DNA of 64,000 bases from Candidatus Solirubrobacter pratensis (lineage in GTDB: Bacteria > Actinomycetota > Thermoleophilia > Solirubrobacterales > Solirubrobacteraceae). Where the stretch lies: the NCBI RefSeq assembly GCF_000425945.1, contig NZ_AUEK01000006.1, positions 434,001-498,000 of the forward strand, given 5' to 3'. Position 1 is the first letter of the stretch. Each line of letters starts with the position of its first letter. The translations under genes were made by a program, and so were the position numbers. Below the pieces are notes generated by a model. It did not search any database. It was given only the letters and a program-made list of their open reading frames with translations, and was not told the DNA's origin. This document shows positions 11,414 through 24,921 of this stretch, in pieces.

Positions 11414-11448
11414 GTCGTGGCACGGACGGTCGAGGCGGCGGCTCGCAT
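11410..11448 (-). CDS. 12-codon upstream reading frame (possible leader peptide)
   Basis: An ATG at 11448 opens a 12-codon frame reading MRAAASTVRATT. Its TGA overlaps the GTG of the GT2 gene as GTGA. The ATG is 8 bases after a TAGGAT hexamer (11462-11457), the same spacing and sequence seen before the epimerase at 12415. A leaderless peptide that delivers ribosomes to the GT gene is a reasonable reading; it could also be chance. Confidence 0.35.
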
Positions 11449-11456
11449 GGCGCGCA

Positions 11457-11462
11457 ATCCTA
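11457..11462 (-). promoter_or_regulatory. Candidate -10 element TAGGAT for 11448/11413
   Basis: TAGGAT on the minus strand, in the context CCTAGGATTGCGCGC followed by an ATG. The same 15-base context recurs before the epimerase start at 12415, which argues that it is functional. Confidence 0.45.
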
Positions 11463-11479
11463 GGCGGATGGCCAGCGGG

Positions 11480-12415
11480 CTAGCTCGCCGGTGCCGGCGC
11501 GCGCTCGTTCGCGAGGGTCCACTCGAGCGTCCTGGCGAGTCCGTCGTCGACGGCAGTCCGCGCGCGCCAGCCGAACCGCTCGCCCGCCGCGCTCGGATCC
11601 AGGCACGAGCGGCGGATCTCGCCGGCGCGGGCGGGGAGCGTCTCCGTCCGCACGCCAAGCGCCGAGGCCAGCTCCAGAAGCGTCGTCTCGCGCCCCGTGG
11701 AGACGTTCAGCTCACCCTCGACGGTGCTCGCCCCAGCGGTCATGAACGCCTCGACGACGTCGCCGACGTAGATGAAGTCGCGCGTCTGCCCGCCGTCGCC
11801 GAACAGGCGCGCGCGCCGGCCCTTGGCGGCGGCGCCGCAGAAGATCGCGACGACGCCCGCCTCGCCGTGCGGATCCTGGCGGGGCCCGTACACGTTGGCC
11901 ATCCGCAGTGACAGCGTCGAGACCCCATGCAGCCGGCTGAACAGCCGCAGATAGGACTCCGCGGCGGCCTTGCTCGTCCCGTATGGCGACAACGGCGCCA
12001 CGGGCTCGCCCTCGGTCGTCGGGATCCGCGCGGGGTCGCCGTAGACGCCGGCGGTCGATGCCAGCAGCACGCGCTCCACGCCGGCGTCCCGCGCCGCCTC
12101 GAGCACGGCGGCCGTGCCGCCGATGTTGACGTACGCGTCGGCCGCCGGGTCCTCCACCGATCGCCGCACATCGATCTGCGCGGCCAGGTGGAACACCACC
12201 TGCGGCCGCGCGGCGCGGAACGCGTCGAGCATCGTCGCGATCTCGGTCACGTCCGCGCGCACGACGGACGCGCCGCGCGCACGCGCGTCCGCGAGATTGT
12301 GGCCGTTCCCCCGCTGCAGATGGTCGACGACCGTCACCTGATCGCCCCGCGCGATGAGCGCGTCGACCAGGTGGGAGCCGATGAATCCGGCTCCGCCGGT
12401 CACGAGCGATCGCAT
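11480..12415 (-). CDS. NAD-dependent sugar epimerase/dehydratase, GalE-like
   Basis: This 311-residue extended SDR has the NAD-binding TGGAGFIGSHLVDALI, FHLAAQIDVRRSVEDP, STAGVYGDP, and the catalytic YGTSK. Enzymes of this type epimerise or dehydrate UDP- or GDP-sugars. I chose the ATG at 12415 because a TAGGAT hexamer ends exactly 8 bases upstream; a TTG at 12424 would lie inside that hexamer. The gene directly follows ctaA, although the functions are unrelated, and the same pair is repeated in decayed form upstream. The sugar substrate is unknown. Confidence 0.9.
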   Translation of the reverse strand: MRSLVTGGAGFIGSHLVDALIARGDQVTVVDHLQRGNGHNLADARARGASVVRADVTEIATMLDAFRAARPQVVFHLAAQIDVRRSVEDPAADAYVNIGGTAAVLEAARDAGVERVLLASTAGVYGDPARIPTTEGEPVAPLSPYGTSKAAAESYLRLFSRLHGVSTLSLRMANVYGPRQDPHGEAGVVAIFCGAAAKGRRARLFGDGGQTRDFIYVGDVVEAFMTAGASTVEGELNVSTGRETTLLELASALGVRTETLPARAGEIRRSCLDPSAAGERFGWRARTAVDDGLARTLEWTLANERAPAPAS

Positions 12416-12423
12416 TGCGCGCA

Positions 12424-12429
12424 ATCCTA
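12424..12429 (-). promoter_or_regulatory. Candidate -10 element TAGGAT overlapping the ctaA stop
   Basis: The TAG stop of ctaA (12429-12427) is also the first half of TAGGAT. Eight bases separate it from the epimerase ATG, so transcription would begin at or next to the start codon. Confidence 0.5.
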
Positions 12430-13386
12430 GGGCGAGCGGATCAGCTCACCGGCAGCCGGCGCGGGTGCGCCGGCGCGCCGAGGTGCAAGCCGGCCCGCCG
12501 CGGCCGTCGCCCACAGCAGCGAGATCCACGTCGTCGCTGCCAGCACCACGTGGAACCAGACGATCTCGCCGGGCAGCTTGAGCGCGTACTGCGTCGCGCC
12601 GACGAACCCCTGGCACGCGAGCAGGACGCACACCGCCGTCAGCGCGTTGCGGGTCTGGTCGTCGGCACGGCGCGCCCGCGCGAGGAACCACACGCCGACC
12701 GCCGACAGCCCAAGCAAGGTCGCCAGCGCGCCGTGCTGGTGGATCGCCCAGTCGAGCGTGTCCGCACCGCGCCAGCGCAGGCGCGGGACGATGTCGCCGG
12801 TGCCTTCGCCGCCCGCATGCGGACCCGCGGCGGTCGCGATCGTCCCGAGCGCCAGCGTGATCGCACCCGGCACAAGGAGCGCGCGAACGGCCCAGGTCGT
12901 CACCCGGTCGCTGGCAAGCCGCCGCTCGCCCGGCTCGAACGTCGCCCGCCACGCGAGCGCGACCGCCGCGACCAGCAGGGCCATCGACAGCAGGAAGTGC
13001 CCGATCACCCATCCCGGCGCGAGGCCGTAGAGGACCGTGAGGCCGCCCATCACGGCCTGGCCGACCACGCCGAGCGGTAGCGCGAGCGCGATCAGCGCGA
13101 GATCGCGCCGGAACGGGCGCCGGCGCCAGGCCAGGATCGCCGCGGCCACGCACGGGATCGCGACCACGCTGGTCATCACGCGGTTGGAGAACTCGATGAT
13201 CCCGTGCAGCCGCAGCTCCGGCGTCAGCCGCGTGCCCTCGCAGCGCGGCCACTCAGGACAGCCGAGACCGGAGCCGGTGAGCCGCACGGCGGCGCCGGTG
13301 AACACGATCAGCGTGCAGACCGCGAGCGCCGCGTAGGCCACGTACCGGTACTCGCGCGGAGTGAACGTGCGGCTCAGCCGGCGCAT
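12427..13386 (-). CDS. ctaA: Heme A synthase (COX15/CtaA)
   Basis: This 319-residue membrane protein has about eight hydrophobic segments and four conserved histidines as heme ligands, for example LHGIIEFSNR, GWVIGHFLLS, WAIHQHGAL and VWFHVVLAA. The first loop has GLGCPEWPRCEG, a cysteine pair typical of CtaA. The enzyme converts heme O to heme A for aa3-type cytochrome oxidase at the membrane. A GGAGG ribosome-binding site lies 5 bases before the ATG. The gene is intact, while a second copy upstream survives only as an N-terminal scrap (14434-14523). Confidence 0.94.
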   Translation of the reverse strand: MRRLSRTFTPREYRYVAYAALAVCTLIVFTGAAVRLTGSGLGCPEWPRCEGTRLTPELRLHGIIEFSNRVMTSVVAIPCVAAAILAWRRRPFRRDLALIALALPLGVVGQAVMGGLTVLYGLAPGWVIGHFLLSMALLVAAVALAWRATFEPGERRLASDRVTTWAVRALLVPGAITLALGTIATAAGPHAGGEGTGDIVPRLRWRGADTLDWAIHQHGALATLLGLSAVGVWFLARARRADDQTRNALTAVCVLLACQGFVGATQYALKLPGEIVWFHVVLAATTWISLLWATAAAGRLAPRRAGAPAPAAGELIRSP

Positions 13387-13424
13387 GCGGCCTCCATTGT
13401 GGCAACCGTCCGTGGGAGCGTGGG

Positions 13425-14330
13425 TCAGCTCGCCGCGCCGGCGCCCGCGCGCACCGTCTCGAGCGTCCGCTCCAGGCCGCCCGGCAGCGGCGCCGAGCCG
13501 CTCGGCGGCCGCGCCCGGATCGAGGCACGAGCGCCGGATCTCCCCGCGCCGGGACCCTTGACCGTCTTGAGGCCGAGCGCACCCGCGAGGTCGTTGAGGC
13601 TGCTCTCGGTCCCGGTGGAGACGTTGAGGCTGCCGTTGACGTCCGAGCGCTCGGCGGCGGCGAACGCGGCCACCACATCGCTGACGAGGATGAAGTCGCG
13701 CGTCTGGTGGCCGTCGCCGTAGATCGTCGCTGGCCGCCCTTCGGCCGCCGCGCCGCAGAAGATCGCCACCACGCCGGCCTTACCGTGCGGGCTCTGTGCG
13801 GGCCGTCCACGTTCGCCATCCGCAGCGACAGCGTGGAAAGCCCATAGAGGCGCTGGAACAGGTCCAGGTAGGTCTCGGCCGCTGCCTTGCCGGCGCCGTA
13901 CGGCCACAGCGGCGCCACGGGTGCGGTCTCGGTGGTGGGCAGCCCGGCGGGGTCGCCGTACACGCTGGCCGTCGAGGCCAGCACCACGCGCCCCACCACC
14001 GCGTCGCGCGCCGCCTCGAGCACCGACGCGGTGCCGCCGATGTTCACGTTCGCGTCGCCGGGCGGGTCCTCGACCGAGCGGCGCACGTCGATCTGCGCCG
14101 CCAGGTGGTACACGGCCTCGGGGCGCACGTCGCGGAACGTGCGCGCAGCGCCGTCAGGTCGGTCACGTCGGCGCGCACGAGCCGCACGCCCTTCGCCTGC
14201 GTGCCGGCGAGGTTGTCCGCGTGGCCACATCGCGGGTGGTCGACGACCGTCACTTCGTCGCCTTGCGCCACCAGCGCGTCGAGCAGGTGCAACCCGATGA
14301 CCCGGCTCCTCCTGTGACAAAGTGCCCCAC
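13425..14330 (-). pseudogene. Decayed second copy of the GalE-like epimerase
   Basis: Read in three frames, this stretch follows the epimerase at 11480-12415 along nearly its full length. Recognisable blocks are VTVVDHPRCGHADNL, YHLAAQIDVRRSVEDP, VVLASTASVYGDP, YGAGKAAAETYL and QTRDFILVSDVV. The frame breaks near 14306 (one T missing after GGAGCCGGG), near 14140, near 13800, and again near 13555 and 13480. The catalytic motif also reads YGAGK instead of YGTSK. The gene cannot make a complete enzyme. With the ctaA scrap at 14434-14523 it forms a tandem, degenerate repeat of the intact ctaA-epimerase pair. Confidence 0.85.
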
Positions 14331-14433
14331 GGGATCGATCTAGGCGACGGAGCGCTGGGCACCGCCCGGCTCGTAGGCCTCCGCCACGATCTGGACGCCC
14401 CAGGGCGTCCGCGGCAGGTTCACGCGAACAGCG
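14331..14433 (-). other. Unassigned remnant between pseudo-epimerase and ctaA scrap
   Basis: One minus-strand frame reads VNLPRTPWGVQIVAEAYEPG and then GAQRSVA before a stop, which looks like the C-terminus of a real protein. I do not recognise it. It may be the tail of a gene lost when the second ctaA copy was deleted. Confidence 0.3.
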
Positions 14434-14523
14434 GGCCAGGCCGGTGCCGGTCAGCCGCACGGCAGCGCCGGTGAACACGATCAGCGTGTAGGCGGCGCGC
14501 GCGGCGTATGCGACATGGCGGTA
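14434..14523 (-). pseudogene. ctaA: N-terminal remnant of a second ctaA
   Basis: The minus strand reads YRHVAYAARAAYTLIVFTGA followed by AVRLTGTGLA. This matches residues about 14-42 of the intact CtaA. The start codon and everything after the first periplasmic loop are missing. It precedes the decayed epimerase in the same order as the intact pair, which supports a tandem duplication followed by deletion. Confidence 0.8.
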
Positions 14524-14632
14524 TTAGTGCGGTATGACCGTGGTCCGGCGAGTCATCCGGTGGTCATTGTGACCGGTGCCAATAGAAGAGCGCGATCCGC
14601 TCGGCAAGTTCATCGAAGTCGCCAGGCCACGC

Positions 14633-14645: not shown

Positions 14646-15347
14646 ATGACGCGCGCGACGTGGCCGAAGCCCATGCCCGAGCTCACCCAAGAGCAGGGCG
14701 CGATCCGCGATGACTGGATGAAGTACTTCCACGAGATGCTCTCCGACACCTACGGCCCGCTCGCGCGCTTCAACCACCAGTATGCCGGACGCACGGCGCG
14801 GCGTTGCACCCGGACGCTCGAGATCGGCGCGGGGCTCGGCGAGCACCTGGACTACGAGGACGCCCGCGAGCAGGAGTACGTCGCGCTCGAACTGCGCCAG
14901 GAGATGGCGGACGTGATTTCGGAGCGCCATCCCGAGGTCAAGACGGTGATCGGGGACATCGAGCAGCGCCTCGAGTTCGAGGACGCTTCGTTCGATCGTG
15001 TGATCGCCATCCACGTCCTCGAGCATCTGCGCAACCTGCCGGCCGCGCTGGACGAGGTCCACCGGTTGCTCAAGCCCGGCGGGCACTTCTCGATCGTGAT
15101 CCCGTGCGAGGGCGGATTCAGCTACCGGATCGGTCGCAGGTTCACGTCCCAGCGCACGTTTGAGAAGCGTTACAAGACCGACTACGAGTGGTACATCAAG
15201 ACCGAGCACTTCAACATCCCGAGCGAGATCGTCGCCGAGCTCGACCAGCGTTTCGAGCGGGAGCACCGAGGGTTCTTCCCGTTGCGGATAGTCCCGACCG
15301 TCCACATGAACGTCTGCCTCGGGCTGACGTATCGCCGCCCGGCCTGA
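14646..15347 (+). CDS. SAM-dependent methyltransferase (class I, type 11-like)
   Basis: This 233-residue protein has motif I as LEIGAGLGEHLDYED. It then has VALELRQEM, DIEQRLEFEDASFDRVIAIH, the VLEHLRNLPAAL block and LLKPGGHFSIVIP, the usual Methyltransf_11 series. It probably methylates a sugar, lipid-linked intermediate or small molecule, because the downstream region is a glycan locus. The start is the ATG at 14646, 7 bases after a TAGCCT hexamer. It converges with the minus-strand operon, and both stop codons lie inside one hairpin (15338-15361). Confidence 0.85.
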   Translation: MTRATWPKPMPELTQEQGAIRDDWMKYFHEMLSDTYGPLARFNHQYAGRTARRCTRTLEIGAGLGEHLDYEDAREQEYVALELRQEMADVISERHPEVKTVIGDIEQRLEFEDASFDRVIAIHVLEHLRNLPAALDEVHRLLKPGGHFSIVIPCEGGFSYRIGRRFTSQRTFEKRYKTDYEWYIKTEHFNIPSEIVAELDQRFEREHRGFFPLRIVPTVHMNVCLGLTYRRPA

Positions 15348-15361
15348 CGGCTCAGGCCGGG
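15338..15361. terminator. Bidirectional hairpin holding both convergent stop codons
   Basis: CCCGGCCTGA (15338-15347) pairs perfectly with TCAGGCCGGG (15352-15361) around a 4-base loop. The plus-strand TGA and the minus-strand stop are both within the stem. It probably ends transcription from both sides. Confidence 0.6.
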
Positions 15362-16113
15362 TTGCGGAGCACGGCGAGCAGGTTGAGCCCGATCGGCATC
15401 GGCACGCGCGACTCGATCGCACGCCCGAGCGGAACGCCGGTGCGATCCCAGAGCGAAAGCCCTTGGCCGATCGTCGTCTCGACCTTCGAGCGCGAGAACA
15501 CGAACCAGGCTGGGATCGCCAAGATGTTGGCGTAGCGCAGCTCCTGCACCTCGAGCCCGGCTTCGCGCGCCACGCCGCGCACGCGCCACTTCGAGTAGCG
15601 CCGGAAGTGCCCGACCTTTCGATCCCACACGCCATAGAGCCCGTTGAGCGCGGGTACATACAGGACGATCGTTCCTCCCGGGCGGACGACCCGTCGCAGA
15701 GAAGCCAGCGCCCCCGCATCGTCCTCGATGTGCTCGAGCACGTTCACCATCAGGGCCGAGTCGAAGCGCTCGGTTGGATCTGGCTCCCGAATGTCAAGGC
15801 GCGCGACGCGGACGTTTGGGGAGGCGTCGAAGCGACGATGCAAGGCCGCCAGACACTCATCCGATATGTCCGTCGCCAGCACGTCGCGCCCCTCCGAATA
15901 TCGCATCGTGATCGCGCCGAACCCGGCGCCGACCTCGAGCACGCGTGCGCCGAGCGCCGGCCGGCAAAGATCGGCGATCCACGTCAGGTAGTTCGGCGAA
16001 GCCTCGTCGGCGATGTCGAGGGCGCGATCGTGCTCTCCCTCGACCTCCGTGACCGCGTGCGGATGCACATAACGCGCCGCGGGTGGAGCATTGAAGCGGC
16101 GCGTCGCCGTCAC
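15352..16113 (-). CDS. SAM-dependent methyltransferase, last gene of the heptose operon
   Basis: This 253-residue class I methyltransferase has motif I as VLEVGAGFGAITMRY, then LATDISDECL, RFDSALMVNVLEHIEDD and VVRPGGTIVLYVPAL. C-terminal to this, GVWDRKVGHFRRYSK is common in methyltransferases of polysaccharide loci. The GTG at 16113 overlaps the transaldolase stop (GTGA), so it is the last gene of the nine-gene operon that starts at 22645. A likely role is O-methylation of a heptose or of the growing glycan. The acceptor is not determined by the sequence. Confidence 0.87.
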   Translation of the reverse strand: MTATRRFNAPPAARYVHPHAVTEVEGEHDRALDIADEASPNYLTWIADLCRPALGARVLEVGAGFGAITMRYSEGRDVLATDISDECLAALHRRFDASPNVRVARLDIREPDPTERFDSALMVNVLEHIEDDAGALASLRRVVRPGGTIVLYVPALNGLYGVWDRKVGHFRRYSKWRVRGVAREAGLEVQELRYANILAIPAWFVFSRSKVETTIGQGLSLWDRTGVPLGRAIESRVPMPIGLNLLAVLRNPA

Positions 16114-16871
16114 AGCGTGAATCCGGCGGCCGCTGCGTCGCGGTGGAACATGCGCACGGTGTCGAGCGAGAACTCGTCCAGGTCGCGTCCGAGCCACGGC
16201 AGCTTCCTGAGTAGGTCGTGCGTGACCGTGATGATGTGACAGCCGATCTGATCGGCCTGCACGACGTTGAGCAGCTCGCGCGGGCTGGCCCAGATCAGCT
16301 CGAGGTTCTCGTGCACGGCCAGCACGTCGAGCGCCTCGCGCATGATCGGCAGCGGGTCGCGTCCGGTGTCGGCGATCCGGCCGGCGAACACCGAGACGTA
16401 CGACGGCGCGCCGCCGCCGATCGCCTCGGCGACCCAGGACACCTGGCGCAGGGTCATCATGCCCGTGACATTGAGCCGGACGCCGTCGGCGACGAGGTGG
16501 CGCAGCACCTCCTCACAATGGTCGCCGCGCGTGTTCGTGACGGGCACCTTCACGTGGACGTGCTCGCCCCAAGCCGCGATCTTGCGCGCCTGCCGCTCCA
16601 TTTCCGCGAACTCGTCCGAGAAGACCTCGAACGAGATCGGGCGGTCCGGCACCGCCTCGACGAACGAGCGCGCGAACGCCTCGTAGTCGCGCAGCCCGAC
16701 CTTGTGCATCAGCGTCGGGTTGGTCGTGAAGCCCTTGATGAGCGGGTTCGCGTACAAGTCCAGGATGCCCTGCAGGTCCGCCCCGTCGGCGAAGACCTTG
16801 ACCTGGAGCTCTGCGGCGTCGATCGGCCGCTCCAGCGTCAGGTTCTCGGGGCGATCGTCTCGATGATCCAC
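16110..16871 (-). CDS. tal: Transaldolase
   Basis: This TIM-barrel protein of about 253 residues has KGFTTNPTLMHKVGL (strand 2), FEVFSDEF, HVHVKVPVTN with the Schiff-base lysine at about residue 108, and SVFAGRIADTGRDP. Transaldolase exchanges three-carbon units and can make sedoheptulose 7-phosphate from fructose 6-phosphate and erythrose 4-phosphate. In this operon that product is the substrate of GmhA, so the gene probably supplies precursor to the heptose pathway. The start is uncertain. The GTG at 16871 overlaps gmhB by 34 bases; a later start inside the first 23 residues is possible. The stop overlaps the next methyltransferase start (GTGA). Confidence 0.85.
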   Translation of the reverse strand: MDHRDDRPENLTLERPIDAAELQVKVFADGADLQGILDLYANPLIKGFTTNPTLMHKVGLRDYEAFARSFVEAVPDRPISFEVFSDEFAEMERQARKIAAWGEHVHVKVPVTNTRGDHCEEVLRHLVADGVRLNVTGMMTLRQVSWVAEAIGGGAPSYVSVFAGRIADTGRDPLPIMREALDVLAVHENLELIWASPRELLNVVQADQIGCHIITVTHDLLRKLPWLGRDLDEFSLDTVRMFHRDAAAAGFTL

Positions 16872-17380
16872 GTGACGCTCTCCTTGAGCTCGGTGACGGT
16901 CAGATCGGCGGCGTCGGGCGCCGGCTCGTCGTAGCTGCGGTCGAGGAAGACGGTTTTGGTGCCGGCGGCGCGGCCTGCTTCGATGTCGCGCCAGCGGTCG
17001 CCGACCATGACGCTGCGCCCCAGCCCGACGTCCCAGCGGCGGGCTGCGTCGAGCAGCATCCCGGGGCGTGGCTTGCGGCACGCGCAGGCGTCGTCGTCGT
17101 CGTGCGGGCAGACGACCACCTCGTCGACGTCCACCAGCTCGCGCAGGCGCGCGTTGATAGCGTCGACGGCGGCGCGCGACTGCGTCCCGCGCGCGATGTC
17201 GGGCTGGTTGGTGACGACGATCAGCGGCAGGCCGGCGGCGCGCAGCTCGCTGCATGCCTCGGCGACGCCGGGCAGCAGCGCGATCGCGTCCGGCGTCGCC
17301 GGCGGGTGCGGGCGGCCGGCGACGAGCGGCGCCTCGTTGAGCACGCCGTCGCGGTCCAGGAACACGGCGGGACGGCTCAC
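16838..17380 (-). CDS. gmhB: D-glycero-D-manno-heptose 1,7-bisphosphate phosphatase (HAD family)
   Basis: This 180-residue HAD phosphatase has the nucleophile motif FLDRDGVLNE at residues 7-16, TNQPDIARG as motif II, and MVGDRWRDIEAG as motif IV. Between them are zinc ligands Cys91, His93, Cys99 and Cys101 (CPHDDDDACACRKP), the hallmark of the GmhB/HisB-N group. GmhB removes the C7 phosphate of heptose bisphosphate before nucleotidyl transfer. The GTG at 17380 overlaps the epimerase stop (GTGA), which also removes a spurious upstream extension. GmhA, HddC and HddA partners are all in this operon, so the assignment is firm. Confidence 0.9.
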   Translation of the reverse strand: MSRPAVFLDRDGVLNEAPLVAGRPHPPATPDAIALLPGVAEACSELRAAGLPLIVVTNQPDIARGTQSRAAVDAINARLRELVDVDEVVVCPHDDDDACACRKPRPGMLLDAARRWDVGLGRSVMVGDRWRDIEAGRAAGTKTVFLDRSYDEPAPDAADLTVTELKESVTWIIETIAPRT

Positions 17381-18339
17381 GCGGGCATCCCCGCCTTGAG
17401 GTCGTCGAGCATCGCGGCCATCGACTGCCTCAGCGCCTCGCGCGAGCCGCACGACGGCGTCCAGCCGAGCCCGCGGATGCGCTCAGTGGAGAGCCGTACG
17501 ATCGGGACGTCGCCCTTCCAGCCGCGGTTCTCGGTGCCGTACTCCAGCTCGGCGCCGGACGCGCCGACGACTTCGACCGCCAGCTCGGCGATCTCGCGCA
17601 CGGTGATGTAGTCGCCGGTCGCGACGTTGTAGACGCCGAACGGCGACTCCGCGGCGTCCACGGCGGTCAAGACGGCGCGCACGACGTCTCCCACGAGGAT
17701 GTACGACTTGCTCTGCGTCCCGTTGCCGAGCACGGTCAACCGCTCGGGATCCTCCAGCAGTCGCCGGACGAAGTCGAAGCCGACGCCGTGTGTCTGGCGG
17801 CGGCCGACCACGTTGCCGAACCGGAACGCGACCCCGCGCGAGCCGAACATGTACGCGTAGGAGCTGATCAGCGCCTCGCCGGCGAGCTTGCTGGCGCCGT
17901 AGGTCGAGACCGGGACCAGCGGCCCGTGGTCCTCCGTCGCCTCGTGCTCGCCGAGGTCGCCGTAGACGCCGCTGCCCGACGCATACGCGATGCGCGGAGT
18001 GCCCGTGAGCCGCATCGCCTCGACGACGGTGTGGGAGATCAGGGTGCCCTGGTCGAAGTCGACGGCGGGATCGGTCATCGCGGCGGCGATGTCCGGGTTC
18101 GACGCGAGGTGGATCACGAGATCGTGACCCTCCATCGCGCCGGCGAGCGCCTGCCGGTCGGTCGCCTCCCCGCGCACGACCGCAAGCCTCGGGTCGTCGC
18201 CGTGATGCGCGTAGTGCCACTCGCGGCCGGAGCTGAAGTTGTCATAGAGCGTCACGCCGCGCGTGGCCTCGTCGGCCAGCAGCGCGTCGGTGAAATGGCT
18301 GCCGATGAACCCGGCGCCGCCGACGATGAACGCCCTCAC
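17377..18339 (-). CDS. NAD-dependent nucleotide-sugar epimerase/dehydratase in heptose operon
   Basis: This 320-residue extended SDR starts with FIVGGAGFIGSHFTDALL and has VIHLASNPDIAAAMTDP, YASGSGVYGDLGE and the catalytic YGASKLAGE. These features suit a GalE- or RmlB-like enzyme on a nucleotide sugar. Because it sits between gmhA and gmhB, it may modify GDP-heptose, for example by epimerisation, as the Campylobacter capsule enzymes do. That substrate is inference. The GTG at 18339 overlaps the gmhA stop (GTGA), and the gene ends with another GTGA overlap. Confidence 0.85.
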   Translation of the reverse strand: MRAFIVGGAGFIGSHFTDALLADEATRGVTLYDNFSSGREWHYAHHGDDPRLAVVRGEATDRQALAGAMEGHDLVIHLASNPDIAAAMTDPAVDFDQGTLISHTVVEAMRLTGTPRIAYASGSGVYGDLGEHEATEDHGPLVPVSTYGASKLAGEALISSYAYMFGSRGVAFRFGNVVGRRQTHGVGFDFVRRLLEDPERLTVLGNGTQSKSYILVGDVVRAVLTAVDAAESPFGVYNVATGDYITVREIAELAVEVVGASGAELEYGTENRGWKGDVPIVRLSTERIRGLGWTPSCGSREALRQSMAAMLDDLKAGMPA

Positions 18340-18938
18340 GCCGGCGCCACCGCCTCCCACTTCGTCTCAGCCGCCTTCAGAGCCGGGTGGCTGACGAGCA
18401 GGTGCCAGACGACGGCGCACAGCGCCTCGGTGTGCGGCGTCAGGTGCTCCGGATACAGGGGCGGGATGACGACGCACGCGTCCGCGACGCGCGCGGTGTG
18501 CCCGCCGTCACGGCCGACGATGCCGTAGATCCCGGCGCCCGCGGCGCTCGCCGCGTCCACTGCGCGGACGAGGTTGGCCGAGACGCCGCGCTCGGCATCG
18601 CCGCCGCCCACCGAGAAAACGAGCACCGCGTCGTCGGCGCGGACGCGCGAGCCTTCGAGCCAGGCGGAGAACGTCGTGTCCCATCCCTCGTCGTTCGTGC
18701 GCGCGGTCAACTCGGAGACGTTGTCGGTCGGCGCGTAGGCCTCGAACGCGCACAGCTTGCGGAAGTCGTTGACGGCGTGGCCGGCGTGGCCGGCGGAGCC
18801 GCCGACGCCGAGGATGAACAGCCGCCCGCCGCGGCCGCGCCGGTCGGCGAGCCCGGAGGCCACGGCCTCGATCGCGGCGGCGTCCAGCGCGTCGATCACG
18901 CGCGCTGTCTGCTCGAGATAGCGCTCGGCGAAGCTCAC
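18336..18938 (-). CDS. gmhA: Sedoheptulose 7-phosphate isomerase (SIS domain)
   Basis: This 200-residue protein is one SIS domain with FILGVGGSAGHAGHAVNDFR, the phosphate-binding loop. LTARTNDEGWDTTF and FSVGGGDAERG follow, and YGIVGRDGGHTA lies near the end. It matches GmhA, which turns sedoheptulose 7-phosphate into D-glycero-D-manno-heptose 7-phosphate. The start is a GTG at 18938 overlapping the TylF-like methyltransferase stop (GTGA). Together with hddA, gmhB and hddC it gives a complete GDP-heptose pathway within one operon. Confidence 0.9.
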   Translation of the reverse strand: MSFAERYLEQTARVIDALDAAAIEAVASGLADRRGRGGRLFILGVGGSAGHAGHAVNDFRKLCAFEAYAPTDNVSELTARTNDEGWDTTFSAWLEGSRVRADDAVLVFSVGGGDAERGVSANLVRAVDAASAAGAGIYGIVGRDGGHTARVADACVVIPPLYPEHLTPHTEALCAVVWHLLVSHPALKAAETKWEAVAPA

Positions 18939-19702
18939 CGCTTGACGATGATCCCGTGGCCGTTGAGGTTATGGACGACAAGGCGATCCGTGAGCGAGCG
19001 CTGCTCGTTGACGAACTCCGTGATCCCCGGCGTCGCGGCACAGCCGTAGTCGTCGAAGACGACCAACCCGCCCGTCGACAGCCGGGGCCACGCCCACTCG
19101 AACACGTCCTTGGCGGACTGGTAGACGTCGACGTCGATGTGACACAGACGCAGCGGGAGGTCGCCGACGGAGTGGGCCGTGTCGTCCGGGAAGATCCCCT
19201 GCAGGAGCTCGACGTTCCTGAGCCTGAGACCCTGCACGAGGCTCTCGACCGTCTCGCGCGAGGTGTCGCTGTGCTTGCCGTCGCGGTAGTAGATGTCGAG
19301 CGCACCGGTCTTGACCACGCCCTCCCAGGTATCCGCGAGGAACACTGGCTCGTCGATGCCGAGCAGCTCTGCCCGCCGCGCCATCACCGCGCCGGTGCCG
19401 CCGCGCCAGACCCCGACCTCGAGAATCGCGCCCGGGATCTCGCGCAGCTCGCCGACGAGCTCCCACAGCTCGTGGCAGCGCCACACGTCGACGAGCGTGT
19501 GCCGGCGAACCGCCTGATAGACCTGCTGAAACGGCTCGTCGGCCTCCCACGGCGCGTACGCCGAGACCGGGTACGCCATCGCGTAGGCGCCCGAGCGCAC
19601 GGCCTCGCGACGGACGAGCGGAAGGGCGGCGCCCTTGGCGATCGAGAACCCGCCGTCGCGCAGCAGCTTCCCGTAGTAGGTCGAGTACTTGACCGGCATC
19701 AT
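18935..19702 (-). CDS. TylF/MycF-type O-methyltransferase
   Basis: This 255-residue protein has ILEVGVWRGGTGAVMARRA as the SAM-binding motif. FLADTWEGVVKTG and LRLCHIDVDVYQSAKDV follow, where acidic residues bind Mg(II) in this family, and then LVVFDDYGC. TylF/MycF enzymes methylate sugar hydroxyls, for example on macrolide deoxysugars, so this one probably O-methylates the heptose or another glycan sugar. The ATG (19702) is immediately next to the stop of the upstream GT2, and its stop overlaps gmhA (GTGA). Confidence 0.88.
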   Translation of the reverse strand: MMPVKYSTYYGKLLRDGGFSIAKGAALPLVRREAVRSGAYAMAYPVSAYAPWEADEPFQQVYQAVRRHTLVDVWRCHELWELVGELREIPGAILEVGVWRGGTGAVMARRAELLGIDEPVFLADTWEGVVKTGALDIYYRDGKHSDTSRETVESLVQGLRLRNVELLQGIFPDDTAHSVGDLPLRLCHIDVDVYQSAKDVFEWAWPRLSTGGLVVFDDYGCAATPGITEFVNEQRSLTDRLVVHNLNGHGIIVKR

Positions 19703-20953
19703 CTAGTCCTCCGTTGCCTCCAGGTCAACGCGCCCCCTGGCCGTCGCCACGACGGTGCCGTGCAGGAGGAGTGTGAACACGAACAATTGCGCGCCGGCGA
19801 TCGCAAGAGCGAGACCGGTCACCGCAAGATGCGCTTTCTCGATCGAGTCAGGGCGCGGGAGCCGATAGTCCTGACTGACGTACGCGTAGACAAGCGAGAG
19901 CGTGAGGAGCACGCCGACCACACCCGTGACGAACGCGATCAAGACCGAGCGCGTGTAGGGGAAGAGCCGAAGCCAGCGGCGCTTCCTGCGGCCCGTGTAG
20001 TCGAACAGCACGTGCGAGACGCCGCCGAGGAACACGAACTGCAGCCCGACGACGAACATCGCGACACCGAGGAACTGCCAGTTGAGCGACAGCGTGAGCG
20101 AGCCGATGGCGAGGTCGCCGAACGTCACCGGGAACGTCAGCAGGATCCCCAGCGCCAGCAGCAGCGCCCCCGGCTTGAGCAGGAAGAAGTCGGAGCCGTA
20201 GACGAACATCGCGCGCAGGTTGATCCAGGCCGCGGCCCACGGGGAGAACCAGCCCGAGCGCTTGTGGTGGCTGAGCCGGCCCTCGCGATCCTTGAGGAAG
20301 GTGACGGCGACCTCGGTCGTGGCCAGATCCATGTGCACGGACTTCAGAACCATCTCGGACGCGTACTCCCATGACTCCGACTGCAGCTGCATCCGCTTCA
20401 GCGCGTCGAGCGTGATCCCGCGCATGCCGCAGTGGATGTCCGAGAAGTGGCTCGAGTACAGCCGGTTGAGGATCCACGTCGTGACCGGCGTGCCGAAATA
20501 CTGGTGCAGCCGCGGCATCGCGCCCGGCTCGATCGAGCCCTTCCAGCGCGAGCCCATCACGTACTCGTATCCGTCGCGGAACGCGTCCACGAACGGCGCG
20601 AGCTCGCGGAAGTCGTAGGTGCAGTCCGCGTCCCCCATCAGCACCCACTCGCCGCGGATGTAGGGAATCGCGTCCATGTAAGCGCGCCCGAGTCCGCGCT
20701 TGGGAACACGCAGCACGCGGGCGCCGGCGGCGACCGCGAGCTTCGCCGTGTCGTCGGTCGAGGAGTCGACGATCAGGATCTCTCCTCGCACGCCGGCGGC
20801 GTCGAGCCCCTGGCGGCACCAGGCGACGAAGTCGGAGATCGTGAGCTGCTCGTTGAGCGCCGGGATGACGATCGACAGCCGCGGGTCGTCGACATCTTCC
20901 TCCGGGATCAGAAGTTCGACGTCGAGCCGGTCCGGCGTCGCGACGCTCGTCAT
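19703..20953 (-). CDS. GT2 glycosyltransferase with four C-terminal membrane helices
   Basis: This 416-residue protein has a GT-A domain (residues about 25-245): LSIVIPALNEQLTISDF, ILIVDSSTDD, and the metal-binding VLMGDADCTYDF. Four hydrophobic segments follow, at about 265-290, 300-325, 345-370 and 380-405. It resembles membrane GT2 enzymes that load a sugar onto polyprenyl phosphate. The ATG overlaps the hddC stop (ATGA), so the natural donor may be the GDP-heptose made by this operon. If so, it would make polyprenyl-phosphate-heptose for use on the outer face. That donor is inferred from context only. Confidence 0.85.
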   Translation of the reverse strand: MTSVATPDRLDVELLIPEEDVDDPRLSIVIPALNEQLTISDFVAWCRQGLDAAGVRGEILIVDSSTDDTAKLAVAAGARVLRVPKRGLGRAYMDAIPYIRGEWVLMGDADCTYDFRELAPFVDAFRDGYEYVMGSRWKGSIEPGAMPRLHQYFGTPVTTWILNRLYSSHFSDIHCGMRGITLDALKRMQLQSESWEYASEMVLKSVHMDLATTEVAVTFLKDREGRLSHHKRSGWFSPWAAAWINLRAMFVYGSDFFLLKPGALLLALGILLTFPVTFGDLAIGSLTLSLNWQFLGVAMFVVGLQFVFLGGVSHVLFDYTGRRKRRWLRLFPYTRSVLIAFVTGVVGVLLTLSLVYAYVSQDYRLPRPDSIEKAHLAVTGLALAIAGAQLFVFTLLLHGTVVATARGRVDLEATED

Positions 20954-21663
20954 GACACGCCTCCCGGGCCGGCGAGCCGGTGCTCGAGCTCGGCAAGGCC
21001 CTCGGGCGAGCCGATCTCGTAGAAGCGCTCGGTCACCTCCAACCCGGCAACGCGTCCTTCCAGGCTGAGCCGGCGATAGAGGTCCGCGAGGTCCATGACC
21101 GCTTCGGGCGGGACCGCGGGCAGGATCGCGTCGCGGTCGATGATTGATAGGCCATAGTCGATGTAACGCATGCCGACTGCCGCCGGATCGGCGGCAGTCT
21201 TGTCATAAACGACCGAGCCACCCTCGAGTCGCGCGTTTGAGCAGGCGCCGTCGTTGCGGAAGACCGTCATCAGAACGTCGCGACGCGCGCGCCGGAACTC
21301 GGCGAACGCGACCCCCACGTCCACGGACAGGAACGAATCACCGTAGAGCACGGCGAACGCGTTTTCCAGCAGCTCCGCGTCATACGCCAGACGCAGTGCG
21401 CCGGCCGTGCCGCGCAGCCGGTCGCCCTCGTCGGTGTAGCGCACGCGCAGCCCCCACGCCGCGCCATCGCCGACAAAGTCGCGGATCAGGCCGCCCAGGT
21501 GGCCGATCGCGAACACGACGTCGGTCACGCCGTCCGACGCGAGCCAGCGTAGTTGGTGGTCGGCGAACGGCTTGCCGGCGACGGACAGCAGCGCCTTCGG
21601 GATCGTCTCGGTCGCCGGCCGCATGCGGGTGGCCAGGCCGCCGGCGAGGATCACGCACTGCAT
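20950..21663 (-). CDS. hddC: D-glycero-alpha-D-manno-heptose 1-phosphate guanylyltransferase-like nucleotidyltransferase
   Basis: This 237-residue protein has the nucleotidyltransferase signature VILAGGLATRMRP at residues 4-16. The uridylyl/guanylyl-type strand TIPKALLSVAGKPFADHQL, AVLYGDSFL (metal-binding Asp) and ERFYEIGSPEGL follow. The family joins sugar 1-phosphates to NTPs. It lies next to a GHMP kinase of HddA type and in one operon with gmhA and gmhB, so GDP-heptose synthesis is the best reading; a different NTP-sugar cannot be ruled out from sequence alone. It starts one base after the hddA stop and overlaps the next GT2 gene. Confidence 0.88.
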   Translation of the reverse strand: MQCVILAGGLATRMRPATETIPKALLSVAGKPFADHQLRWLASDGVTDVVFAIGHLGGLIRDFVGDGAAWGLRVRYTDEGDRLRGTAGALRLAYDAELLENAFAVLYGDSFLSVDVGVAFAEFRRARRDVLMTVFRNDGACSNARLEGGSVVYDKTAADPAAVGMRYIDYGLSIIDRDAILPAVPPEAVMDLADLYRRLSLEGRVAGLEVTERFYEIGSPEGLAELEHRLAGPGGVS

Positions 21664-21664
21664 G

Positions 21665-22645
21665 TCAGTTGCGGACGATGACGGTCGAGCCGTCGTGGTC
21701 GAAGGTGAAGCGCGTCTCGGTCAGGCCGTGTCCGCTCATCGCTGCCCGCAGCGCGGGCGGATCCGCCGCGTAGAACATCAGGAAGCCGCCGGTGCCGGCG
21801 CCGACGAGCTTGCCCCCGATCGCACCGTTGCTCACGCCGGTCGCGTACCAGCGGTCGATGTCGTCGTTCGTCATGCCGGAGGAGCGCGCGCGCTTGCGCT
21901 GCCAGTGCTCATCCATCATGCGGCCAAAGTCCTCGGGCCGCCCGGCCTCGAGCGCCTCGCGGATGCGGAGCCCCAGTTGCTTTGTCTGTCGCAGGTTCTC
22001 GAGCATCTGCGCATCGCCGCGCTCCGAACGCGTCCGCTGGTCCGCGAGGATCGAGCCGGCCGAGCGCGAGTAACCGGTGAAGAACAGCAGCAGGCGTTCC
22101 TCGAGATCGTGCACGGTCTCTTGCGAGACGGCGAGAGGGCTGACCGCCACGCTGTCGTCCGCGCGGAACTCGAAGCACGTCAGCCCGCCGTGGGCAGCGA
22201 TGTACTGATCCTGCTTGCCCACCGGCTCGCCCAGCACGTCGATCTCGATCCGCGCCGCCTCCTCGGCCAGCGCCTCGGCCGCGATGTGCTCGCGCTTGTG
22301 TGCGTACACGGCGCGCAGCAGGCCGACCGTGAACGCGCCCGACGAACCGAGGCCGGTGCCGGACGGGATGTCGGCTAGGGAGACCATCTCGAGGCCGGGC
22401 TCGAGATCATGCGCCTCGAACACGGCGCGCACGATCCGGTGCTCGATGTCGGCCACCGAGCGGCGCCGCTCCAGTTGCGAGTACTTGATCAGGTAGTCGT
22501 CGGTGAACGTCCGATTCAGCCCGATGAACATGTATTTGTTGATCGCGGCCGAGATCACGAAGCCGTCGCACTCACGGTAGAAGGACGGCAGGTCGGTCCC
22601 TCCGCCGCCGATCGAGATCCGTAGCGGTGTGCGGGTGATGAGCAT
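21665..22645 (-). CDS. hddA: D-glycero-alpha-D-manno-heptose 7-phosphate kinase (GHMP kinase)
   Basis: This 326-residue GHMP kinase begins with ITRTPLRISIGGGGTDLPSF, a hallmark of the heptose kinase/HddA group. The ATP-binding loop is PSGTGLGSSGAFTVGLL, and the C-terminal motif is GGKLVGAGTGGFLMFY. HddA phosphorylates C1 of heptose 7-phosphate. The ATG at 22645 places it first in a nine-gene minus-strand operon that runs to 15352. A TAGGAT hexamer lies about 56 bases upstream within a region of inverted repeats. The fucokinase/other sugar kinase alternative is less likely given the gmhA and gmhB neighbours. Confidence 0.9.
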   Translation of the reverse strand: MLITRTPLRISIGGGGTDLPSFYRECDGFVISAAINKYMFIGLNRTFTDDYLIKYSQLERRRSVADIEHRIVRAVFEAHDLEPGLEMVSLADIPSGTGLGSSGAFTVGLLRAVYAHKREHIAAEALAEEAARIEIDVLGEPVGKQDQYIAAHGGLTCFEFRADDSVAVSPLAVSQETVHDLEERLLLFFTGYSRSAGSILADQRTRSERGDAQMLENLRQTKQLGLRIREALEAGRPEDFGRMMDEHWQRKRARSSGMTNDDIDRWYATGVSNGAIGGKLVGAGTGGFLMFYAADPPALRAAMSGHGLTETRFTFDHDGSTVIVRN

Positions 22646-22765
22646 GCGCGGGAGGACGGCGGGCGAGAGCGATCGTGGGCCCGGCACGACCGAAGGCGGG
22701 AATCCTAGCGGCCTTCGTCCCGCGGATTCGCGGTGCGCAGGAGCCCCTAGACTTGGGCACCACAG
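22646..22765. promoter_or_regulatory. Divergent promoter region of the heptose operon and gtrA
   Basis: This 120-base gap separates hddA (-) from the GtrA gene (+). On the minus strand TAGGAT lies at 22707-22702, and on the plus strand TAGACT lies at 22748-22753, 12 bases before the GtrA ATG. Two interleaved inverted repeats surround the minus -10: GAAGGC/GCCTTC (22692-22697 and 22711-22716) and GAATCC/GGATTC (22700-22705 and 22724-22729). They could be operator half-sites or a hairpin. Confidence 0.5.
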
Positions 22766-23221
22766 ATGGCAGGACTGCCCGCCAATCCTCCTGCGCTGGC
22801 TCGATTCGTGCTGGCTCGGCCCGAAGCTCGGTTCCTGATCACCGGCGGGGCCGTCGCGGTCGTGTACATCGGGTTGACGCTGCTGCTGTCGACCGTCGCC
22901 GGACTGCCGATGCCAGCGGCGGTTGCGATCGGCTACGCACTCGCGGTCGTCCTGCACTTCTCGATGCAGCGATGGTTCGTCTTCCGCCACGTGGAGAGCT
23001 TCGCCTTGCGTCCACATCGCCAGGTCCTCCGGTACGCGATCGTGGGTGTGATCCAGTACGCAACGACATTGGCGGCGACTGAACTGCTTGCGCCGAGCCT
23101 CGGTATCTCGCCGCAGATCGCGTTCCTGGGCGTTGTCGCGGTGACGTCGACCACGGGGTTTCTGATGCTCCGCCACGGGGTCTTCCACGCCGAGTCGGAG
23201 CCCGCCGGAGACACCGCGTGA
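22766..23221 (+). CDS. GtrA family membrane protein
   Basis: This 151-residue protein has four hydrophobic segments and the GtrA signature. It includes FLITGGAVAVVYIGLTLLL, the internal HFSMQRWFVFRHVESF, then LRYAIVGVIQYATTLAA. GtrA-type proteins are linked to flipping or presenting polyprenyl-phosphate sugars for glycan modification. The stop overlaps the GTG of the next membrane protein (GTGA), so the two form a unit and could supply and use a lipid-linked sugar. The ATG lies 12 bases after a TAGACT hexamer. Confidence 0.85.
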   Translation: MAGLPANPPALARFVLARPEARFLITGGAVAVVYIGLTLLLSTVAGLPMPAAVAIGYALAVVLHFSMQRWFVFRHVESFALRPHRQVLRYAIVGVIQYATTLAATELLAPSLGISPQIAFLGVVAVTSTTGFLMLRHGVFHAESEPAGDTA

Positions 23222-24921
23222 CCGACCTCTCGCTGCGCGAGCGCCCAACGCGGCGTCCGTCCGCGCTGACGGAGCGGGTCCCGCAGGTCGTCGCCTTCGC
23301 GCCCCGGCTCGGCCTCCCTACCGCCATCGCGGTCGTCGTGGCGTCCGTCGTGGTCGTGACCTGGCGCGCATTGGAGCACGGAGGGCCCTTCTTCGAGGAC
23401 TGGAGGCTCCGAGCGATCGGGCTGTACAACGGGGGGCCCGAGCGGCTCGGGTTCTTCCACTGGTGGGACGGCATCTACTCGGTCTCGCAGTACCGGCCCC
23501 TCAGCGTGCCGTATGTGATGGTGTGGGTCGGATTCGTCGGAGACAGCCCGTTCCGTCACCAGCTCTGGGTGTCCGTGTTCCTGGCCCTCACCGGCTTCGC
23601 GTTGTTTGCGGCCCTGCGTGTCGCGCGCTTTCCATGGCTGTTCGCGGTCGTCGCGGCGACGCTCTTCGTCGCGTTTCCGTTCACTTCCTCGGCGAAGTTC
23701 TGGTCGACGGGATCGATCTTCGACTTTGCCGACGCGCTGGTGCTGGCAGGGCTCGCGCTCGGCGGGATCGTCCTGCGCCACTGGCCGGCGCGCAGGCGCT
23801 GGGGCCTGCTCGCCGCCTCGGTCGTACTGTTCGCCTTGACCGCCGGCTTCTACGAACTTCCCCTCCCGCTGCTGGCTTTGGCGCCGATCTATTACGCCGC
23901 GGCATGCGACGGGTGGCGGCGCGCGGTCTTCGTGAAGACCGGGGCGGACATCCTGGCGGCGGTCGTGATGCTGGCGGTCTTCAGGACCCAAGGTCGGACC
24001 GAGACGTCCGCGGCGGATACCTGGTGGCCGCATGCACGGCAGATCGTCTCCGAGGCCTGCCGGCTATTCTTCGACGCGCTCACGCCGTCGGGGCGCTGGG
24101 ACATCGCGATCGTGGTCATTCTCGTTGCGATCGCCGCAGGCCTGGGTCTGCGATTCGTCGTCGAGCGAGAGGCAACGCTTCGCGACCTCCGGGATGCCCG
24201 GCCGCGATTCGCGCGGTACGCGGTCGTCGGCCTGCTCGGGCTAGTCGCCGCGCTGCTCGCCTATCTGTTCCTCGTCCCAGCTCTGTGGTACCGGCCGCTG
24301 ATGCCCGGGCAGGGCGACCGCAGCAACGCGGCGGCCGCCATCGGCTACGCGGTCGCGTATACGGCGCTCCTCGCAGTGCTCGCGACGCTCGCCGCCTGCG
24401 CCGTCCCAAAGCGGCGGGCGGCGATCGCGGGCTTTGCCACCATGAGCGCGCTGGCACTCGTGTACGCCGGTGCGTTCGCGGCTCAAAGCCGCGGGCAGGG
24501 CGACCTCTACATCAAGGCTTGGCAGGGCTCACACAAGCTCGAGCAGGCTATGCACGCGACGCTGCGGACACCGCTGCCGCCGGGCACGCTCGTGCTCAGC
24601 TTCGGGTCGACCATGTACGTGGCGCCGCTGATCAACCAGATCGGCGACTACAACGACTTTGACGCCGCGGTGAAGTTCGCGGTGGACAACGGCACCGTGC
24701 GCGGCGCGGCAATCTTCGCGCCGCAGCCGGTCGTCTGCGGTCCGACGAAGGTCGAACTGCCGCGTCGGCCGGGTATCGGGCCGCTCTTCGGACCCGCCTG
24801 GAGGGCGCGGTACGGCAAGGTCATATTCATGCAGCCGTACGAGCACCGGACCGAGCGCATCGACTCTCAAGCCGGCTGCCAGGCGGCGCTCACGCGGTTC
24901 ACACCTGGCCCGCTGGCCTGA
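23218..24921 (+). CDS. Multi-pass membrane protein, GT-C-like glycosyltransferase candidate
   Basis: This 567-residue protein has about 10-11 hydrophobic segments. The first outer loop holds acidic residues (GPFFEDWRLRAIG and FHWWDGIYSVSQYRPL), and GT-C enzymes place their catalytic Asp/Glu in such a loop. A soluble C-terminal part of about 120 residues follows, with FGSTMYVAPLINQIGDYNDF. I do not recognise a named family. The GTGA overlap with gtrA suggests that it uses a polyprenyl-phosphate sugar to modify a surface glycan. It converges with the LbH-FkbM gene 9 bases away. Confidence 0.65.
   Translation: MTDLSLRERPTRRPSALTERVPQVVAFAPRLGLPTAIAVVVASVVVVTWRALEHGGPFFEDWRLRAIGLYNGGPERLGFFHWWDGIYSVSQYRPLSVPYVMVWVGFVGDSPFRHQLWVSVFLALTGFALFAALRVARFPWLFAVVAATLFVAFPFTSSAKFWSTGSIFDFADALVLAGLALGGIVLRHWPARRRWGLLAASVVLFALTAGFYELPLPLLALAPIYYAAACDGWRRAVFVKTGADILAAVVMLAVFRTQGRTETSAADTWWPHARQIVSEACRLFFDALTPSGRWDIAIVVILVAIAAGLGLRFVVEREATLRDLRDARPRFARYAVVGLLGLVAALLAYLFLVPALWYRPLMPGQGDRSNAAAAIGYAVAYTALLAVLATLAACAVPKRRAAIAGFATMSALALVYAGAFAAQSRGQGDLYIKAWQGSHKLEQAMHATLRTPLPPGTLVLSFGSTMYVAPLINQIGDYNDFDAAVKFAVDNGTVRGAAIFAPQPVVCGPTKVELPRRPGIGPLFGPAWRARYGKVIFMQPYEHRTERIDSQAGCQAALTRFTPGPLA

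What the first reader, a model, noticed from the sequence alone, without database searches (positions are those of the whole stretch)
11480..14523. Tandem duplication of ctaA-epimerase with a decaying copy
Seen: intact ctaA and epimerase (13386-11480) are preceded by a ctaA N-terminal scrap and an epimerase with at least five frame breaks, in the same order and strand. A third unrecognised C-terminal remnant lies between them. Inference: a duplication occurred, followed by deletion of most of the second ctaA and drift of its epimerase. Heme A synthase and a sugar epimerase do not belong together functionally, so the pair is a genomic accident that became fixed.
Basis: seen in the sequence. Interest (0 to 1): 0.55.

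Follow-up and report, generated by a model that had tools for sequence, protein, structure and literature searches.

The report
Broken gene pieces beside ctaA
Next to the heme A synthase gene of a soil bacterium (Solirubrobacter) lies a small graveyard of three broken genes, most likely left where blocks of sugar-making genes were swapped in and out; it is an ordinary kind of genome scar, though the spot itself seems to be a recurring border for such sugar genes.

Summary
Upstream of an intact ctaA-epimerase pair lie, same strand and order, the 5' end of a second ctaA (14438-14556) and a second epimerase with five frame-breaking gaps (13425-14330). The 'unrecognised C-terminal remnant' (14340-14423) is most likely the last 27 residues of a class I methyltransferase of the kind that accompanies a heptose-type gene cluster elsewhere. 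The two epimerases differ by as much as those of different Solirubrobacter species. Differences sit mainly in third codon positions, and no unconstrained tree makes the two sisters, although sisterhood is not rejected. So the broken copy was a working gene for most of its separate history and broke recently. Its upstream neighbour was a methyltransferase gene, not ctaA alone. ctaA beside sugar genes is no accident: S. soli has the same ctaA-epimerase pair, another genus has epimerase-rmlC-ctaA, and rmlC lies directly upstream of ctaA in 24 of 77 genomes counted. Best reading: a junction scar left by exchange of sugar-gene blocks at a ctaA-bordered locus. An old tandem duplication is the main rival. 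The kind is ordinary; the recurrent ctaA border is the more interesting by-product.

The parts
11480..12412 (-). intact NAD-dependent epimerase/dehydratase (extended SDR), 310 aa
   Evidence: S. soli relative at 68% directly after ctaA
12427..13386 (-). intact ctaA (COX15/CtaA family, heme A synthase), 319 aa, with CACAAT element at 13401-13396
13425..14330 (-). broken second epimerase: five frame-breaking gaps, no internal stop; GTG start and TGA end still recognisable
14340..14423 (-). 3' end (27 codons plus stop) of a class I SAM methyltransferase gene
   Evidence: match to G176 methyltransferase, 62% over 21 aa, and a shared C-terminal pattern with two further family members, a third only in part
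14438..14556 (-). 5' end of a second ctaA, about 40 codons with one TAA; upstream CACAAT element at 14571-14566
12410..12431 (-). 22-nt direct repeat, copy at the ctaA end / epimerase start
   Evidence: 21 of 22 identical to 11443-11464; with up to one mismatch to its 17-nt core only one other place in the genome, none in 6 congeners
11443..11464 (-). 22-nt direct repeat, copy just after the intact epimerase; looks like a misplaced epimerase start
14646..23248 (.). neighbouring heptose-type sugar cluster (HddA-, HddC-, GmhA-, GmhB-like genes, GT2, TylF, SDR, transaldolase, two methyltransferases); context of the scar

Best explanation
The block 13425-14556 is a junction scar, not a working feature. 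A sugar-gene segment from a related Solirubrobacter-like lineage (at least methyltransferase - epimerase) came to lie beside the resident ctaA-epimerase pair by recombination. One ctaA was left with only its promoter end, the methyltransferase with only its last 27 codons, and the extra epimerase, at first intact, has since lost its frame through small deletions. The heptose-type cluster that now abuts the scar is of the same imported kind. Shown: the identity of the three fragments (the methyltransferase one less firmly), the old divergence with recent breakage, and the mosaic neighbourhood. Inferred: that the second copy entered from outside rather than by duplication in place, and the order of events.
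For: Broken and intact epimerases 74.5% identical over 836 nt, no closer than broken copy to G002 (75.3% over 837 nt); differences by codon position 69, 59, 121 of about 300 each, GC3 0.93, as in functional copies. Not sisters in two DNA trees and one protein tree. Methyltransferase 3' end between ctaA scrap and broken epimerase. In G110 (another genus) a collinear heptose cluster (HddA 72, HddC 63, GT2 73, TylF 69, SIS 75, SDR 75, transaldolase 65% identical) ends with that methyltransferase, about 2.6 kb from ctaA. HddA is found at E 1e-60 in 1 of 6 congeners only, and there at 45%, so the cluster is not part of the common Solirubrobacter content. What lies upstream of ctaA differs between the congeners read.
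Against: AU tests do not reject the two epimerases as sisters (p 0.119, 0.317, 0.183). The ctaA scrap is nearest to its own genome's ctaA (85 of 105, against at most 80 in congeners), which fits a duplication in place equally well or better. The broken epimerase has host-like GC3, so no compositional sign of foreign origin. No donor sequence was found. Branching of the broken copy differs between trees.
Confidence: 0.5

Rival explanations
1. Duplication in place of a ctaA-epimerase segment, but old: before or about the split from S. soli. Both copies worked for a long time, S. soli lost one, and in this genome a deletion later fused the ctaA start to the end of an inserted methyltransferase gene and the epimerase broke.
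For: Same strand and order of both pairs; scrap nearest to its own ctaA; the ctaA-epimerase pair is shared with S. soli; a 22-nt repeat brackets the intact epimerase, which suggests slippage or unequal exchange at the locus; AU tests allow it.
Against: Needs both copies kept under selection for as long as congeners have been apart, and complete loss in S. soli, where no trace of a second copy was seen. The methyltransferase end between ctaA scrap and epimerase is not explained by duplicating the pair. Trees do not favour sisterhood.
Confidence: 0.35
2. Recent tandem duplication followed by neutral drift of one copy.
For: Order and strand; frame breaks.
Against: 74.5% identity is as low as between species; third-position bias and kept GC3 exclude long neutral drift as the source of the differences.
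Confidence: 0.08
3. The frame breaks are sequencing or assembly errors in a working second epimerase.
For: All five gaps are losses, three of one base; reads not seen; no internal stop.
Against: Five in about 900 bases, including gaps of 4 and 14, while both intact neighbours read through; the ctaA and methyltransferase fragments are truncated whatever the reads say.
Confidence: 0.07

Closest known systems
Bacterial pseudogenes under deletional bias (Kuo and Ochman 2010, PMC2916853; passages read)
   Same: Inactivation by short deletions, recent relative to the age of the gene, beside a working homologue.
   Different: Several inactivating changes in one gene, whereas most Salmonella pseudogenes there have a single one (346 of 378); the gene diverged long before it broke.
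Recombination scars at the borders of variable surface-polysaccharide loci (recalled, from no call)
   Same: Housekeeping gene at the border of a variable sugar-gene block; truncated border genes; mosaic content between congeners.
   Different: Here the border gene is ctaA; no donor or breakpoint pair was identified, and that the block makes a surface glycan is inferred from gene names only.
ctaA-epimerase pair of Solirubrobacter soli DSM 22325 (G005)
   Same: ctaA followed directly by the epimerase on the same strand, then cupin and NAD kinase.
   Different: No second copy, no ctaA or methyltransferase fragment, other genes upstream, no 22-nt repeat.

Membership tests
Tandem duplication with a decaying copy | two homologous units adjacent, same strand and order | tested here: met
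Tandem duplication with a decaying copy | the copies are each other's nearest kin | tested here: inconclusive
   not sisters in three unconstrained trees, AU p 0.119, 0.317, 0.183; the ctaA scrap is nearest to its own ctaA
Tandem duplication with a decaying copy | the duplicated unit has the same gene content | tested here: not met
   a methyltransferase 3' end lies between ctaA scrap and broken epimerase, none in the intact unit
Pseudogene | reading frame destroyed relative to a working homologue | tested here: met
   five frame-breaking gaps
Pseudogene | breaks confirmed in reads | not testable with these tools
   no reads held
COX15/CtaA heme A synthase (intact gene) | Pfam PF02628 above its cut-off | tested here: met
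   92.7 bits, cut-off 29.9; NCBIfam equivalog cut-off not reached
GalE / RmlB equivalogs (intact epimerase) | NCBIfam equivalog cut-off | tested here: not met
   TIGR01181 170 of 365 bits, TIGR01179 151 of 262: an extended SDR of unassigned substrate
Class I methyltransferase ending in NLPR.P.G.Q (the 27-codon remnant) | C-terminal pattern shared with full-length members | tested here: met
   G176 and G145 share most of it, G110 part, G085 little; E 3.7e-4 for one genome in a search of 232 genomes, so the search alone is weak
GDP-heptose (Hdd/Gmh) gene cluster next to the scar | NCBIfam equivalog cut-offs for HddA, HddC, GmhA, GmhB | tested here: not met
   all below their cut-offs; therefore called heptose-type only

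The most novel reading that the evidence does not exclude
In Solirubrobacterales the ctaA locus is a standing border or acceptor site for nucleotide-sugar gene blocks: rmlC, epimerases or a heptose-type cluster are repeatedly found directly beside ctaA, and blocks are exchanged there often enough to leave truncated ctaA, methyltransferase and epimerase copies. Either the site favours insertion, or expression of the sugar genes is tied to the ctaA promoter and aerobic respiration.
Probability: 0.3. Interest if true: 0.5.

Novelty: new member of a known kind. Interest (0 to 1): 0.22.

Why it matters
As a pseudogene scar it is ordinary. What it adds is a dated example: gene content shows that the second epimerase lived long as a working gene before it broke, so 'decaying duplicate' is the wrong clock. 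It also points to a conserved ctaA-rmlC neighbourhood and to ctaA as a border of exchangeable sugar-gene blocks in a poorly studied soil order, which can be tested on more genomes.

Tried and rejected
Considered and rejected: that the 27-codon remnant is a diverged ctaA C-terminus (CtaA C-termini of the congeners, printed, do not resemble it; the methyltransferase pattern does). That it is the end of rmlC or of the glycoside-hydrolase-like gene upstream of the epimerase in genus g35 (sequences do not match). That the gene before the epimerase in g35 is rmlA: my first guess, dropped on reading its sequence. That the TAGGAT-N8-ATG motif at the two ends of the epimerase is a common promoter of this genome: the 17-nt core with up to one mismatch occurs at three places only.

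Led nowhere: searching the 27 residues in the genus (1 of 7 genomes, own only, at E up to 1; the second own match at 0.4 is an acyltransferase-like frame). Papers: searches found nothing on this locus; PMC10722151 (passages for six terms) mentions none of heme A, epimerase, pseudogene, polysaccharide or horizontal.

Limits: the gene caller is a home-made G+C-by-position rule and misses or over-extends genes (it missed the epimerase in L129 and L130). In one search I copied rows by hand, whose lists the tool had cut; rmlC rows of other families than f1 were left out, and G101, whose rmlC-ctaA pair was seen, is not in the count. The sum 43 within 5 kb was counted by eye on the output. The pairs and one search were matched by eye.

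Full report
What is there. All parts are on the minus strand, so they are read from high to low coordinates. First comes a ctaA 5' end (14556-14438), then the last 27 codons and stop of another gene (14423-14340), then a frame-broken epimerase (14330-13425), then intact ctaA (13386-12427), then the intact epimerase (12412-11480), followed by a GT2 glycosyltransferase, a cupin and NAD kinase. The ctaA fragment matches ctaA at 85 of 105 positions, while random pieces of the window reach at most 60 (n = 1930). It also keeps an ATG and, starting 15 nt before it, the CACAAT element that stands at the same distance before the intact ctaA; similar CAGAAT or CACAAT elements precede ctaA in all five congeners printed. 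The genome has no other ctaA match.

Where it comes from. The window lies in a 6.64-Mb genome of 28 contigs. Its congener G005 has a contig of the same length as, and a matching ctaA with, Solirubrobacter soli DSM 22325, so the genus is Solirubrobacter.

How old the second epimerase is. The two copies are 74.5% identical over 836 nt; the broken copy is 75.3% identical to the gene of G002 over 837 nt and 71.5% to that of S. soli over 836 nt. Between broken and intact copy 69, 59 and 121 positions differ at codon positions 1, 2 and 3 (of 299, 301, 298). The ratio of position 2 to position 3 is 0.48, within the range of functional pairs (0.38 to 0.49), and does not differ significantly between broken-G002 and intact-G002 (Fisher p 0.33). 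GC3 of the broken copy is 0.93, as in the intact one. Read piecewise in the intact frame, 196 of 294 residues agree, with no internal stop. Neutral drift would have levelled the codon positions and brought stops; it did not. So the copy diverged as a working gene and was broken recently, by small losses only. Such losses are the usual first step in bacterial pseudogenes (PMC2916853, passages).

Are the copies sisters? In a DNA tree of codon positions 1+2 (13 rows), the broken copy joins G001, G003, G004 (87/89); in a DNA tree of all positions the same with weak support (54/81); in a protein tree of 36 rows it joins G002 (96/51). In none does it join the intact copy. AU tests do not reject that they belong together (p 0.119, 0.317, 0.183). 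The ctaA scrap, on the other hand, is nearest to its own genome's ctaA (85 of 105; next G003 with 80). Duplication in place is therefore not excluded; if it happened, it is about as old as the split between congeners.

The remnant between. VNLPRTPWGVQIVAEAYEPGGAQRSVA was searched in 232 genomes of the order. The best foreign match, E 3.7e-4 for its genome and 62% over 21 residues, is the C-terminal part of a methyltransferase in G176 (PF13489, E 1.3e-13). Because 232 genomes were searched, that E-value alone is weak. Relatives of that methyltransferase support it: G145 ends in ...FNLPRSPFGWQTVGIAREP, G110 in ...LNLPVGAHGWQTVAVARLP, while G085 and two more distant ones share little. In G176, G110, G145 and G085 the gene lies beside genes like those of the window's heptose-type cluster. 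In G110, a one-contig genome of another genus, the order is HddA, HddC, GT2, TylF, SIS, SDR, transaldolase, methyltransferase, with 63 to 75% identity to the window genes where compared; the window's HAD gene gave no match there at E 1e-8. The ctaA gene of G110 follows about 2.6 kb further on, on the other strand with one frame between. The window has the same order up to the transaldolase, then two other methyltransferases, then the scar. A gene like this HddA was found at E 1e-60 in 21 of 232 genomes; of the 6 congeners only in G003, at 45%.

Is the ctaA-epimerase pair an accident? S. soli has the same pair; the other five congeners have not (1 of 6). In genus g35 six genomes have epimerase, then rmlC, then ctaA on one strand (G148, G149, G150, G153, G156, G157; matched by eye, gene order seen, where the home-made gene caller missed the epimerase in G149 and G150). 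rmlC lies directly upstream of ctaA, same strand, gap under 200 nt, in 24 of 77 genomes that have both among the rows copied, in three genera (18, 4, 2), and within 5 kb in 43 of 77. Genomes of one genus are not independent, so this is a few events kept, not 24. In Solirubrobacter itself rmlC is elsewhere. Whether that has a function is not known.

A further mark. A 22-nt sequence stands at the ctaA end / epimerase start (12410-12431) and again just behind the epimerase (11443-11464), 21 of 22 alike; no shuffle of the window gave such a match, its 17-nt core with up to one mismatch occurs at one more place in the genome and in none of six congeners. The second copy begins a frame of 12 codons that runs into the glycosyltransferase start (read). 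It looks like a misplaced epimerase start and shows that the locus was rearranged more than once.

Most likely account. A sugar-gene segment with methyltransferase and epimerase came to lie next to the resident ctaA-epimerase pair through recombination, the ctaA and methyltransferase at the join were truncated, and the surplus epimerase later lost its frame (confidence 0.5). Old duplication in place with a later methyltransferase insertion and deletion is the main rival (0.35). Recent duplication with drift (0.08) and read errors (0.07) are unlikely. The scar itself is ordinary. Searches for print on the locus (for one genus paper, passages only) found nothing; this covers one open-access library only.

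Noticed in passing
L127, L128, L129, L131, L132, L133, L135, L136 and the rows: rmlC (dTDP-4-dehydrorhamnose 3,5-epimerase family) directly upstream of ctaA on the same strand in 24 of 77 genomes counted, three genera; divergent in two more (G011, G200).
   Followed up: partly
window 14646-23248 and L159: Heptose-type sugar cluster collinear with one beside ctaA in G110, a genome of another genus, but its HddA-like gene is missing at E 1e-60 in 5 of 6 congeners.
   Followed up: partly
window 11443-11464 and 12410-12431: A 22-nt direct repeat brackets the intact epimerase; otherwise almost absent from the genome.
   Followed up: partly
window 12427-13386: ctaA is 78% identical to that of S. soli and 61-66% to other congeners, while NAD kinase and the spermidine-synthase-like neighbour are about equally far from all; yet the first 100 nt of ctaA are nearer to G003. 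Possible mosaic history of ctaA.
   Followed up: partly
upstream of ctaA in window, scrap, and five congeners: A CACAAT or CAGAAT element shortly before the ctaA start in all; a candidate minus-10 element with a very short leader.
   Followed up: no
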